A stretch of 39,656 bases of DNA from an uncultured Anaeromyxobacter sp. (GTDB lineage: Bacteria; Myxococcota; Myxococcia; Myxococcales; Anaeromyxobacteraceae), in contig CAIQRS010000216.1 in assembly GCA_903874275.1 (NCBI GenBank), positions 1 through 39,656 on the forward strand, written 5' to 3'. The position numbers and the translations under genes were made by a program. The notes under the pieces are model-generated. The model worked only from the letters and a program-made list of their open reading frames with translations. It had not been told where the DNA came from and made no database searches. Positions 13,339 to 30,041 of the stretch are shown in pieces; within the stretch, counting starts at the first letter, position 1; each line of letters begins with the position of its first letter.

Positions 13339-15042
<1,704 letters not shown>

Positions 15043-26443: not shown

Positions 26444-27484
26444 ATGGATACGCGCACCGTCGCCGTCGTCGGGGCATCCGGCTACTCCGGCCTCGAGCTC
26501 ACCCGCATCGTCGCCCGCCACCCCGGCCTCCGGCTCGCGTCGGTCTACTCGGACCGCTGGGCGGACGAGTCGGCCGGCTCGCGGCTCCCACTCCCCGCCC
26601 AGGCCGCAGCGCTGCGCTACCTGCCGCAGGCCCAGGCGCCCGCGCTCTCCGCCGACGTGGCCTTCCTGGCGACGCCGGCCGAGGTCTCGCTGGCGCTCGG
26701 CCCGGCGCTGCACGCCCGGGGCGTCGCCGTGGTGGACCTCTCGGGCGCCTTCCGGCTCCACGACCCCGCCGCCTACCCGACCTGGTACGGCTTCGAGCAC
26801 ACCGCGGTCCCGCTCCTCGCCCAGGCCCGCTACGGCCTGCCCGAGCTCGACCGGGCGGCGTTGCGCGGGGCCACCTTCGTCACCAACCCAGGATGCTACG
26901 CCACCGCCATCGCGCTGGCGCTCGCGCCGCTGGTCCGCTCCGGCCTGGCCGCCCGGGAGGGCATCGCCGTCTCGGCCATGAGCGGCGTCTCCGGCGCGGG
27001 GCGGAAGGCCAGCGAGGACTACTCCTTCTGCGAGGTGGACGAGGACCTGCGCGCCTACCGCATCGGTCGCCACCAGCACGTCCCGGAGATCGAGCAGACG
27101 GTGGCGCGCTTCGCCGGGGGGGTGGGCCCCATCTCCTTCACGCCCCATCTCGTCCCCCTGCGGCGCGGCATCCTGGCCACCTGCGCGCTCCGGGCCGCCC
27201 CGGGCGCCACCGCCGCCGCCCTGCGCGACGCCCTCGAGAAGGCCTACGGCTCCGAGCCCTTCGTCCGGATCATGAACCCCGACCGGGTGGCGGTGAAGGA
27301 CGTGGCCCGCACCAACCGCTGCCACATGGGCGCCACGCTCGACGAGCGCACCGGACTCGTCATCGCCGTCTCGGCCATCGACAACCTGGTGAAGGGGGCC
27401 GCCGGGCAGGCGGTCCAGGCCTTCAACGCGACCCAGGGCTGGGACGAGACCCTCGGTCTCGACCTCCCGGGAGGCCAGGCGTGA
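26444..27484 (+). CDS. argC: N-acetyl-gamma-glutamyl-phosphate reductase ArgC
   Basis: A 346-residue NADPH-dependent enzyme for the third step of arginine synthesis. The Rossmann start VAVVGASGYSGLELTRI (6-22) and the catalytic cysteine C151 in VTNPGCYATAIALAL are plain; HQHVPEIEQT and TPHLVPLRRGI are family motifs. Length is typical. The ATG at 26444 follows the ARG-box palindrome by one base and has no clear Shine-Dalgarno, so the mRNA may have a very short leader. Its stop overlaps the argJ-argB start as GTGA. Confidence 0.95.
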   Translation: MDTRTVAVVGASGYSGLELTRIVARHPGLRLASVYSDRWADESAGSRLPLPAQAAALRYLPQAQAPALSADVAFLATPAEVSLALGPALHARGVAVVDLSGAFRLHDPAAYPTWYGFEHTAVPLLAQARYGLPELDRAALRGATFVTNPGCYATAIALALAPLVRSGLAAREGIAVSAMSGVSGAGRKASEDYSFCEVDEDLRAYRIGRHQHVPEIEQTVARFAGGVGPISFTPHLVPLRRGILATCALRAAPGATAAALRDALEKAYGSEPFVRIMNPDRVAVKDVARTNRCHMGATLDERTGLVIAVSAIDNLVKGAAGQAVQAFNATQGWDETLGLDLPGGQA

Positions 27485-29577
27485 AGATCCCCAAGGGGTT
27501 CCGGTTCTCTGGCGTCGCGGCGGGGCTGAAGCCGCAGCGGCGCGACGTGGCGCTGGTGGTCTCCGACGTGCCGGCCGCCGCCGCCGGCCTCTTCACGGTG
27601 AACAAGGCCGCGGCCGCCCCGGTGGCCGACGCGCGCGACCGGGTCCCCGCCGAGGGCATGCGCGCGGTCCTCGTGAACAGCGGCAACGCCAACGCGCTCA
27701 CCGGCCCGCGCGGCCTGGAGGACGTGGCCACCCTGCGCGGCGCGGTGGCCGACGCGCTGGGCGTGCAGAAGCGCGCCGTGCTCACCGCCTCCACCGGCGT
27801 CATCGGGGTGCGGATGCCGGCCCAGAAGATCCTCGACGCCATCCCCTCGCTGGTGGAGCAGCTGGGCGCGCGGGCCGACTTCGCCGCCGAGGCCATCATG
27901 ACCACCGACACCCGCCCCAAGATGGCGGCGCGCGAGGTGGTGGTGGGGGGGAAGGCCGCCACCGTGGCCTGCATCGCCAAGGGCTCGGGGATGCTGGCGC
28001 CGCAGCTCGCCACCATGATCTGCGTGGTGGTGACCGACGTCTCGGTGACCCCCAAGGTCCTCCAGGAGGTGCTGGGACGGGCGGTGAAGTGCACCTTCGA
28101 GATGCTCACCGTGGACGGCGACATGTCCACCAACGACTCGCTGGTCGCCCTGGCCAACGGCCTGGCCGGGAACGCGCGCATCTCCGAGCCCGGGCCCGAC
28201 CAGGAGGTCCTGGAGACCGCCATCACCGACCTCTTCCGGGAGATGACCCGGGCCATGGCCTCCGACGGCGAGGGGGCCTCCAAGCTCCTCGAGGTGGTGG
28301 TGACCGGCGCCCCCACCGACGCCTCCGCCCGCGACGTGGCCCGCTCCATCGCCAATTCACCGCTGGTCAAGGCGGCCCTCTTCGGCGCCGACCCCAACTG
28401 GGGACGGGTGCTGGCCACGGTGGGCGCGCGGGCCGGGACCCGCGGCTGGCTCATCGACCCCTTCAAGGCCCGGGTCCTGCTCCAGGGCGTGGCGGTCTTC
28501 TCGGGCGGGGCCCCCACCGAGTTCGACCGGGAGGCCCTGAAGGCGCGCATGCGCGAGCCCGCCATCGACCTGCGGGTCGAGCTGGCCGACGGGGACGTCA
28601 CCGCGACCGCCTGGGGCTGCGACCTCTCCTACGACTACGTCAAGATCAACGCCGACTACGCCTCGCAGATCGTGCAGAAGCCCGACGGCGGCGTGGCCCG
28701 CGAGGACCACGTGGCCAACTACTCGCCGGCCTTCAAGCGGGCGTTGCTGGCCGAGGCGCTCAAGTACATCGCCGCCTTCTCCGGGCAGGTGGCGGTCATC
28801 AAGTACGGCGGCGCCGCCATGGTGAAGGAGTCGCTCAAGGAGGCCTTCGCCGAGGACGTGGCGCTGCTGAAGTCGGTGGGGCTGAAGCCGGTGGTGGTGC
28901 ACGGCGGCGCCCAGGAGGTGACCCGGACCATGGAGCGGCTGGGCGAGCGCTCCGAGTTCGTGGACGGCCTGCGCATCACCGACGCCACCTCGCTGCCGGT
29001 GGTGGAGATGGTGCTCACCGGCAAGGTGAACCAGGAGCTGGTGGCGCTCCTCAACGCCCGCAACGCCTCGGCGGTGGGGCTCTCCGGCAAGGACGGCCAG
29101 CTCCTGCGGGCCCGCAAGATCGTGCACGAGAGCGGCCGCGACCTGGGGCACGTCGGCGAGGTGGTCGAGGTGAACAAGGACTTCCTGAAGATGCTCCTCA
29201 AGTCCGGGTACGTGCCGGTCATCTCCCCCATCGGCAGCGGCGAGGACGGACGCGGACTATCGGTGAATGCCGACGACGTGGCCGCGGCGGTGGCGGCGGC
29301 GCTGGGGGCGAAGAAGCTCATCTACCTGACCGACGTGCCCGGCATCCTCGAGTCGGCGCCCGACGGCGGCATGGTCCGCCAGATCTCCGGCCCGGATCTG
29401 GAGAAGCGCGTCGAGGCCGGCGCCATCACCGGCGGCATGAAGCACAAGGCCCGCGCCATCCTGCGGGCGCTCGCCGGGGGCGTGGAGCGGGTCCACGTCC
29501 TCGACGGCCGCGTCCCCCACACCGTCATCGCCGAGCTCTTCACCGACCGCGGCGTGGGAACCCTGATCTACAAGTGA
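27481..29577 (+). CDS. argJB: ArgJ-ArgB fusion: ornithine acetyltransferase / acetylglutamate kinase
   Basis: One continuous 698-residue frame encodes two arginine enzymes. Residues 1-393 are ArgJ (glutamate N-acetyltransferase/ornithine acetyltransferase): STGVIGV, AKGSGMLAPQLATMI with the self-cleavage site A177-T178 and nucleophile T178, TVDGDMSTND, and the usual ArgJ end DLSYDYVKINADY. A linker of about 20 residues leads to ArgB (about 415-698), N-acetylglutamate kinase: EALKYIAAFSGQVAVIKYGG (K441), EFVDGLRITD, VGLSGKDG and NADDVAAAVA. The helix before the kinase core resembles that of arginine-sensitive ArgB. The usual HGGGPQ loop reads HGGAQE (474-479). If ArgJ self-cleaves, products would be about 177 residues and a 521-residue beta-ArgB chain. 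GTGA overlaps link it to argC and argR. Confidence 0.93.
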   Translation: MKIPKGFRFSGVAAGLKPQRRDVALVVSDVPAAAAGLFTVNKAAAAPVADARDRVPAEGMRAVLVNSGNANALTGPRGLEDVATLRGAVADALGVQKRAVLTASTGVIGVRMPAQKILDAIPSLVEQLGARADFAAEAIMTTDTRPKMAAREVVVGGKAATVACIAKGSGMLAPQLATMICVVVTDVSVTPKVLQEVLGRAVKCTFEMLTVDGDMSTNDSLVALANGLAGNARISEPGPDQEVLETAITDLFREMTRAMASDGEGASKLLEVVVTGAPTDASARDVARSIANSPLVKAALFGADPNWGRVLATVGARAGTRGWLIDPFKARVLLQGVAVFSGGAPTEFDREALKARMREPAIDLRVELADGDVTATAWGCDLSYDYVKINADYASQIVQKPDGGVAREDHVANYSPAFKRALLAEALKYIAAFSGQVAVIKYGGAAMVKESLKEAFAEDVALLKSVGLKPVVVHGGAQEVTRTMERLGERSEFVDGLRITDATSLPVVEMVLTGKVNQELVALLNARNASAVGLSGKDGQLLRARKIVHESGRDLGHVGEVVEVNKDFLKMLLKSGYVPVISPIGSGEDGRGLSVNADDVAAAVAAALGAKKLIYLTDVPGILESAPDGGMVRQISGPDLEKRVEAGAITGGMKHKARAILRALAGGVERVHVLDGRVPHTVIAELFTDRGVGTLIYK

Positions 29578-30041
29578 GCGCCCGGGACGCCAGCCGGCGC
29601 CGCGACGCCGTGGCGCGCATCCTGCGGGCCGGACGGGTGTCCACGCAGGAGGAGCTGCTGGACGGGCTGCGCCGCCAGGGAATCCGGGCCACCCAGGCCA
29701 CCCTCTCCCGCGACCTGGCCCGCCTCTCGGCCCGCCGGGTCTCCCGCCCGGAGGGCTCCTTCTACGAGATCGGCGACGGTGCGCCGGCCGCCGTCGCCGC
29801 CGCCGTGGCCGGGCTGGTGTCGGCGGTGGCCACCAACGGCTCGCTGGTCGTGATCCGGACCCTGCCGGGCAGCGCGCCGGCGGTGGCCCGCGCCATCGAC
29901 CTGGCCCGCCTCCCCGGGGTCCTCGGCACCATCGCCGGCGACGACACGGTCTTCGTGGCTCCCTCGCGCGGCCGCGGCGCGGGCGCGCTCTCGGGGAGGC
30001 TTTCGGGGCTCTTCGAGGGGGCGCGCGCGGCGAGGTCCTAG
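29574..30041 (+). CDS. argR: Arginine repressor ArgR
   Basis: A 155-residue regulator. The N-terminal winged helix carries the recognition motif IRATQATLSRDLARL (37-51), and the C-terminal oligomerisation and arginine-binding domain has GTIAGDDTVFV (118-128). ArgR hexamers bind arginine and repress arginine genes. The GTG start overlaps the argJ-argB stop (GTGA), so repressor and enzymes share one mRNA; with the palindrome before argC this predicts autoregulation. The 3' end overlaps the convergent flavoprotein gene by four bases. The C-terminal tail (SRGRGAGALSGRL, SGLFEGARAARS) is typical. Confidence 0.92.
   Translation: MSARDASRRRDAVARILRAGRVSTQEELLDGLRRQGIRATQATLSRDLARLSARRVSRPEGSFYEIGDGAPAAVAAAVAGLVSAVATNGSLVVIRTLPGSAPAVARAIDLARLPGVLGTIAGDDTVFVAPSRGRGAGALSGRLSGLFEGARAARS

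What the first reader, a model, noticed from the sequence alone, without database searches (positions are those of the whole stretch)
27481..29577. ArgJ and ArgB fused into one 698-residue polypeptide
ArgJ and ArgB are normally separate proteins. Here the frame continues through the usual ArgJ end (DYVKINADY) into a full ArgB without stop. ArgJ normally cleaves itself before a threonine (here T178), so the mature form would be an ArgJ alpha chain and a hybrid ArgJ-beta/ArgB chain. This would join the first-step/fifth-step acetyl recycling to the second-step kinase, and tie a heterotetramer-forming enzyme to a hexamer-forming one.
Basis: partly seen in the sequence, partly recalled or inferred. 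Interest (0 to 1): 0.62.

Follow-up and report, generated by a model that had tools for sequence, protein, structure and literature searches.

The report
Arginine enzyme fused to arginine sensor
Two arginine-making enzymes, ArgJ and ArgB, were joined once, long ago, into a single protein in myxobacteria-like bacteria, and the ArgB half has since tended to lose its kinase site while always keeping its arginine-binding site, so it probably serves as a built-in arginine sensor for ArgJ.

Summary
The 698-codon ArgJ-ArgB frame is real. All 22 other fusions recovered from the window's family (6 genera, 72-93% identity) span the junction in one open frame, and 82 fusions were read across Myxococcota. 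Both halves form single clades (SH-aLRT 99 and 100), so it is one ancient fusion. Elsewhere argJ and argB are adjacent, separate genes in the same order.

In 80 of 82 fusions the arginine-binding site is complete; the other two are a contig-cut and a frameshifted copy. The kinase/N-acetylglutamate site ranges from 11/11 residues (20 fusions) down to 1/11, with at least 8-9 changes of state on the tree. All 23 window-family fusions carry G45A and N158S (E. coli numbering), which none of 43 stand-alone NAGKs has. Of 51 genomes scored, none of the 35 with a degenerate site lacks a separate NAGK; two unscored assemblies do. The window genome's separate NAGK has no arginine site.

Best reading: an ArgJ carrying an arginine-sensing amino-acid-kinase domain, resembling ArgA (NAGS) in design but built on the unrelated ArgJ fold. 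Kinase activity of the window's own copy is uncertain. Arginine control of ArgJ is inferred, not shown. I found no published description.

The parts
26444..27484 (+). argC, first gene of the operon; its stop overlaps the fusion start (GTGA)
   Evidence: TIGR01850 371 bits, cut-off 233.6
27481..29577 (+). argJ-argB fusion, 698 aa, GTG start
27481..28011 (+). ArgJ alpha chain (residues 1-177), by homology
   Evidence: aligned to solved alpha chains 1vra_A, 3it4_A
28012..28014 (+). T178, ArgJ self-cleavage nucleophile
   Evidence: solved beta chains begin at this residue; kept as Thr, or as Ser in 12 listed fusions of one clade
28012..28665 (+). ArgJ beta part (residues 178-395), ending at the Ser that is the C-terminus of stand-alone ArgJ
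28666..28725 (+). inter-domain linker (residues 396-415)
   Evidence: alignment of 60 fusions; low-confidence stretch of the AF2 model at 384-408
28735..28782 (+). N-terminal helix of arginine-sensitive NAGK type, with Y429 (= T. maritima Y15, codon 28765-28767)
28723..29574 (+). ArgB (amino-acid kinase) half, residues 415-698
   Evidence: phmmer best to arginine-sensitive NAGKs 2rd5, 2buf, 2bty; Foldseek 2buf TM 0.89 by target length
28909..28911 (+). A477 in place of the Gly equivalent to E. coli G45
   Evidence: 23/23 family fusions A; 43/43 stand-alone NAGKs G
29260..29262 (+). S594 in place of the NAG-binding Asn equivalent to E. coli N158
   Evidence: 23/23 family fusions S; 43/43 stand-alone NAGKs N
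29314..29316 (+). K612, arginine-site lysine (T. maritima K196)
29533..29562 (+). arginine-site loop ELFTDRGVGT
   Evidence: motif as defined in PMC3236213 and PMC4490483; complete
29574..30041 (+). argR-like arginine repressor gene, overlapping the fusion stop (GTGA)
   Evidence: TIGR01529 110.8 bits, E 5e-32, below its cut-off of 130

Best explanation
The protein is an ornithine acetyltransferase (ArgJ) carrying, at its C-terminus, an amino-acid-kinase domain derived from an arginine-sensitive ArgB. The two neighbouring genes argJ-argB lost the stop between them once, in an ancestor within Myxococcota (shown by trees and outgroup gene order). The precursor probably cleaves itself before T178, leaving an alpha chain and a beta-linker-ArgB chain (inferred from homology). 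At first the fusion did both jobs, as it still appears to in lineages where it is the only ArgJ and the only NAGK. Later, in several lineages, a separate NAGK made the fused kinase activity dispensable; that activity was altered or lost, while the arginine site and N-helix were kept under selection (shown as sequence patterns). The retained function is most likely to bind arginine, and perhaps to assemble a ring, and to transmit feedback inhibition to ArgJ, as the catalytically silent kinase domain of ArgA does for its acetyltransferase (inferred). In the window's own family the kinase pocket carries G45A and N158S, so N-acetylglutamate kinase activity is probably impaired, but it may persist.
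For: Single origin: ArgJ-half tree, all 65 fusions one clade, SH-aLRT 99; ArgB-half tree, 28 fusions one clade, SH-aLRT 100. Outside Myxococcota argJ and argB are adjacent and separate, same order. Arginine site 9/9 in 80 of 82 fusions while the kinase site spans 11 down to 1 of 11. In 29 kinase-dead fusions, arginine-site columns are retained at 99.5%, other conserved columns at 72%, kinase columns at 31%; over 13 chosen lineages, arginine versus other columns permutation p = 0.014. Dead ArgB halves evolve under purifying selection, dN/dS 0.06-0.60, similar to their ArgJ halves. Among 51 scored genomes a separate NAGK is absent only where the fused site is intact: degenerate/has 35, degenerate/none 0, intact/has 8, intact/none 8. 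The fusion is the sole ArgJ although the kinase is dead in G086, G122, G126, G127, G085, G144. The window genome's separate NAGK has the kinase residues but no N-helix or arginine site. No two-domain ArgA above cut-off in 28 genomes. A dead ArgB half (L185) still folds as this domain; its best PDB match is T. maritima NAGK with arginine bound, 2bty.
Against: No biochemistry shows arginine binding to, or inhibition of, any fused ArgJ. The window family keeps K8, G44, R66, D162 and K217, which a pure sensor would not need, and its ArgB half is at least as conserved as the ArgJ half, so the kinase could be active. The relative placement of the two domains is undetermined (pTM 0.56). The separate-NAGK association rests on few independent changes: 7 independent pairs, none contrary, not significant. 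Two unscored degenerate assemblies, G050 (98% complete) and G134 (85%), show no separate NAGK. Kinase-column retention is circular because the dead set was chosen by it. Several Polyangia with a dead fusion have an arginine-sensitive separate NAGK, so control there need not sit in the fusion.
Confidence: 0.6

Rival explanations
1. Plain bifunctional enzyme: both halves are catalytically active in the window's organism, and the fusion couples acetyl recycling to the arginine-controlled kinase step; G45A and N158S are tolerated or tune the site.
For: 9 of 11 scored kinase residues kept in all 23 family members and strong purifying selection; TIGR00761 above cut-off; argC lies in the same operon; sister lineages without any other NAGK must use the fused kinase.
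Against: G45 and N158 are invariant in 43 stand-alone NAGKs, and PMC4490483 cites loss of R66, N158 and K217 as removing NAGK activity in an Azospirillum NAGS; a complete separate NAGK beside a second argC is present in the family.
Confidence: 0.33
2. The fused kinase in the window's family has shifted to another acyl-amino-acid substrate, with the pocket changes G45A and N158S marking a new specificity.
For: Catalytic lysines are kept while only substrate-pocket residues changed, and identically, in six genera.
Against: No neighbouring gene points to another pathway: the operon is argC-argJB-argR.
Confidence: 0.05
3. Assembly or frameshift artefact joining two genes.
For: The window lies in a 285-contig draft genome.
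Against: 82 fusions, including single-contig genomes and the isolates Anaeromyxobacter soli, Archangium violaceum and Polyangium fumosum.
Confidence: 0.01

Closest known systems
ArgJ, ornithine acetyltransferase (PF01960; TIGR00120; PDB 1vz6, 1vra, 3it4)
   Same: Full ArgJ domain with oxyanion T-G, K-G-S-G, A|T cleavage site, catalytic Glu and C-terminal NADY
   Different: Normally ends at NADY-R-S/T; here a linker and an ArgB domain follow
Arginine-sensitive NAGK, ArgB (PDB 2buf, 2bty)
   Same: N-helix, arginine-site Tyr and Lys, E-L-F-T-x-x-G-x-G-T loop, overall fold
   Different: Fused behind ArgJ; G45A and N158S in the window family; kinase site lost in other lineages
ArgA/NAGS, amino-acid-kinase domain plus acetyltransferase (TIGR01890; PDB 2r8v, 3d2p)
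   Same: A largely non-catalytic, arginine-binding kinase domain joined to the enzyme that makes N-acetylglutamate
   Different: The acetyltransferase is ArgJ, not GNAT, and the sensor is C-terminal; independent origin; TIGR01890 cut-off not met
Other arginine-pathway fusions: bifunctional NAGS/K, yeast ARG5,6 (NAGK-ArgC), ArgH(A), and the NAGS-ArgC gene of Haliangium ochraceum
   Same: Joined arginine-pathway steps (PMC3236213, PMC3329491, PMC1382215, PMC4490483)
   Different: None joins ArgJ to ArgB

Membership tests
ArgJ (ornithine acetyltransferase) | Profile match above curated cut-off | tested here: met
   NF003802 453.9 against 351; TIGR00120 415.9 against 298
ArgJ (ornithine acetyltransferase) | Catalytic residues and A-T self-cleavage site | tested here: met
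   T105, G106, K167, T178, E264, N390 aligned to G. stearothermophilus OAT
ArgJ (ornithine acetyltransferase) | Self-cleavage into two chains and acetyl transfer | not testable with these tools
   needs expressed protein
NAGK (ArgB) | Profile match above curated cut-off | tested here: met
   TIGR00761 247.3 against 151.3 for the window; the kinase-dead L185 half scores 120.5, below it
NAGK (ArgB) | ATP and NAG site residues (E. coli K8, G11, G44, G45, G64, R66, N158, D162, D181, G213, K217) | tested here: not met
   9 of 11 in the window; G45A and N158S
NAGK (ArgB) | Phosphorylates N-acetylglutamate | not testable with these tools
   enzyme assay needed
Arginine-sensitive AAK domain | N-helix Tyr, Lys196 and E-L-F-T-x-x-G-x-G-T loop | tested here: met
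   9/9 in the window and in 80 of 82 fusions, allowing Phe in the second and Ser in the last loop position
Arginine-sensitive AAK domain | Hexameric ring and arginine binding | not testable with these tools
   needs size measurement and a binding assay
ArgA (NAGS) | AAK domain followed by GNAT domain, TIGR01890 above cut-off | tested here: not met
   147 bits against 202.85, and no GNAT domain in the protein

The most novel reading that the evidence does not exclude
A regulatory amino-acid-kinase domain has been recruited a second time to put a glutamate-acetylating enzyme under arginine feedback: Myxococcota turned a fused, once active ArgB into an arginine sensor of ArgJ, repeatedly discarding kinase activity, in parallel with ArgA. 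The surviving kinase-competent, altered and dead members show the steps of that transition.
Probability: 0.55. Interest if true: 0.75.

Novelty: new variant of a known kind. Interest (0 to 1): 0.6.

Why it matters
In cyclic arginine pathways NAGK is usually described as the main feedback target, and ArgJ is not usually described as controlled by arginine. A lineage-wide ArgJ with a built-in arginine site would move the control point. It would also parallel how ArgA acquired its silent kinase domain, with possible intermediates still alive. Kinase-dead members score below the NCBI ArgB cut-off, so the domain is easily overlooked, and a plain 'ArgJ-ArgB' label would wrongly imply NAGK activity.

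Tried and rejected
Artefact: rejected by the conserved junction. Independent second fusion in family f17, suspected from 43% ArgJ but 58% ArgB identity: rejected, since both halves fall inside the fusion clades. Classical ArgA as feedback target in these genomes: none above cut-off in 28 genomes; isolated acetyltransferase-domain hits were not followed. Apparent fusions in Bacillota, Spirochaetota and Fusobacteriota: adjacent separate genes. Literature searches for an ArgJ-ArgB fusion, for arginine inhibition of ArgJ and for a pseudokinase of this fold found nothing on it; the key review PMC1847373 is not held, so absence from the literature is not proven. The domain arrangement could not be read from the model (pTM 0.56).

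Full report
WHAT IS THERE. The frame at 27481-29577 is open for 698 residues and carries a complete ArgJ (residues 9-395) followed by a complete amino-acid-kinase domain (437-675). It sits between argC (26444-27484) and an argR-like gene (29574-30041); both joints are GTGA overlaps. The ArgJ residues needed for catalysis and self-cleavage are present, including T178 at the start of the beta chain. Stand-alone ArgJ ends at NADY-R-S/T; in the fusion the chain runs on from that residue (S395) through a linker of about 20 residues (396-415) into the N-helix typical of arginine-sensitive NAGKs. An AlphaFold2 model gives two confident domains and a low-confidence joint (mean pLDDT 83.6, pTM 0.56, low at 384-408). 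Foldseek matches are ornithine acetyltransferase 1vz8 and arginine-inhibitable NAGK 2buf. Domain orientation and oligomer are not resolved.

HOW WIDESPREAD, AND HOW OLD. In the window's order about 78 of 145 genomes hold the fusion, contig-cut copies counted (my tally). In the window's own family it is 23 of 24 genomes; the missing one is a 74%-complete draft. A scan of one genome per species for GTDB r220 returned 80 loci. The 42 fused ones carry Myxococcota titles, or are unclassified or 'Proteobacteria' MAG titles, one of which is identical to a locus already placed in this phylum; isolates include Anaeromyxobacter soli, Archangium violaceum and Polyangium fumosum. The Bacillota, Spirochaetota and Fusobacteriota hits have argJ and argB as adjacent separate genes in the same order. 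Trees of the ArgJ half (65 fusions, SH-aLRT 99) and of the ArgB half (28 fusions, SH-aLRT 100) each put all fusions in one clade. One fusion event, by loss of the stop between neighbours, explains this. Many large-genome Myxococcaceae show only a separate ArgB; the three tested have no ArgJ at all, and PMC1865377 reports the linear pathway for Myxococcus xanthus.

THE ARGB HALF IS NOT ALWAYS A KINASE. I scored 11 residues of the ATP/NAG site (E. coli numbering; most named in PMC3236213, with G45 and D162 added from the NAGK literature as I know it) and 9 features of the arginine site (N-helix Tyr, Lys196, and the E-L-F-T-x-x-G-x-G-T loop of PMC3236213 and PMC4490483; Phe accepted in the second and Ser in the last loop position). 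Across 82 fusions the arginine site scores 9/9 in 80; the other two are a contig-cut and a frameshifted copy. The kinase site scores 11 in 20, 10 in one, 9 in 27, and 8 down to 1 in the rest. In one Myxococcaceae clade the P-loop glycine is Arg, G44 is Glu and the R66 segment is deleted. In 29 kinase-dead fusions, arginine-site columns are retained at 99.5%, other columns conserved in kinase-intact proteins at 72%, kinase columns at 31%. The last figure is partly circular because kinase score defined the set; the first comparison is not. With one representative from each of 13 chosen lineages, arginine versus other columns gives permutation p = 0.014. The dead halves are under purifying selection (dN/dS 0.06-0.60, close to their ArgJ halves). 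A model of one (L185, pLDDT 84, pTM 0.84) keeps the fold and N-helix; its best PDB match is T. maritima NAGK with arginine bound.

THE WINDOW'S OWN FAMILY. All 23 fusions carry G45A and N158S and keep the other nine residues. Both positions are invariant in 43 stand-alone NAGKs. The genome has a separate NAGK (L003; TIGR00761 183 bits, cut-off 151) with the kinase residues (10 of 11, D181S) but neither N-helix nor arginine site. A second argC lies about 1.5 kb upstream of it on the same strand. So the fused copy is the only arginine-site-bearing kinase domain found by these searches, and no classical ArgA is above cut-off. Whether the fused kinase still works cannot be settled from sequence: the catalytic lysines are kept, which argues for activity; the substrate-pocket changes argue against.

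SEPARATE NAGK. Of 51 fusion genomes scored for both traits, those without a separate NAGK (8) all have an 11/11 fused site; the 35 with a changed site all have a separate NAGK; 8 have both (Fisher p = 2e-5, not corrected for kinship). On the tree the kinase state changes at least 9 times; 7 independent pairs never go the contrary way but are too few for significance. Two degenerate assemblies outside that table, G050 and G134, show no separate NAGK. In six searched genomes the fusion is the only ArgJ although its kinase is dead, so there the ArgJ half must serve the pathway if it is cyclic.

MECHANISM. Shown: fusion, single origin, retention of the arginine site, repeated change or loss of the kinase site. 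Inferred: self-cleavage, ring assembly, and arginine inhibition of ArgJ through the fused domain. The design resembles ArgA, whose kinase-like domain binds arginine and controls the acetyltransferase (PMC4490483), but the acetyltransferase fold, domain order and origin differ. In lineages with an intact site and no other NAGK the fusion is most simply a bifunctional enzyme whose kinase is arginine-controlled.

LIMITS. No experiment was available. The taxon survey uses one genome per species and some drafts. Literature access was restricted to open-licence papers.

Noticed in passing
L002:105-1307 (own genome, G000:C113): A second, very divergent stand-alone ArgJ (branch length about 2.2 in the ArgJ tree), below the ArgJ equivalog cut-offs but with all catalytic residues; no arginine genes were recognised among the few neighbours checked in a relative. 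Role unknown.
   Followed up: partly
G000:C173:11224-12258 and 13774-14589; L141, L142: A second argC beside the arginine-insensitive NAGK, with an M20 peptidase next to the pair in two relatives; in the window genome about 1.5 kb separates argC2 and NAGK2. It looks like a second acetylated-glutamate pathway block.
   Followed up: partly
L054-L057, L059, L060, L064, L065, L184, L185, L192, L195: One clade of kinase-dead fusions has Ser instead of the otherwise invariant Thr178 nucleophile of ArgJ; those genomes checked also have a normal stand-alone ArgJ.
   Followed up: no
L188:395-397: A Polyangiaceae draft has an in-frame stop inside the fusion linker (GGLV*RDNRL) with the linker otherwise recognisable: recent re-splitting or a sequence error.
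   Followed up: no
L066 (G073:C66): A genome with two fusions; the second copy is more degenerate, with NSDHGS at the ArgJ end and 5 of 11 kinase residues.
   Followed up: no
L061 (G039:C4): Fusion interrupted by a frameshift in the ArgB half; both pieces are otherwise well conserved, so probably an assembly error or a recent mutation.
   Followed up: no
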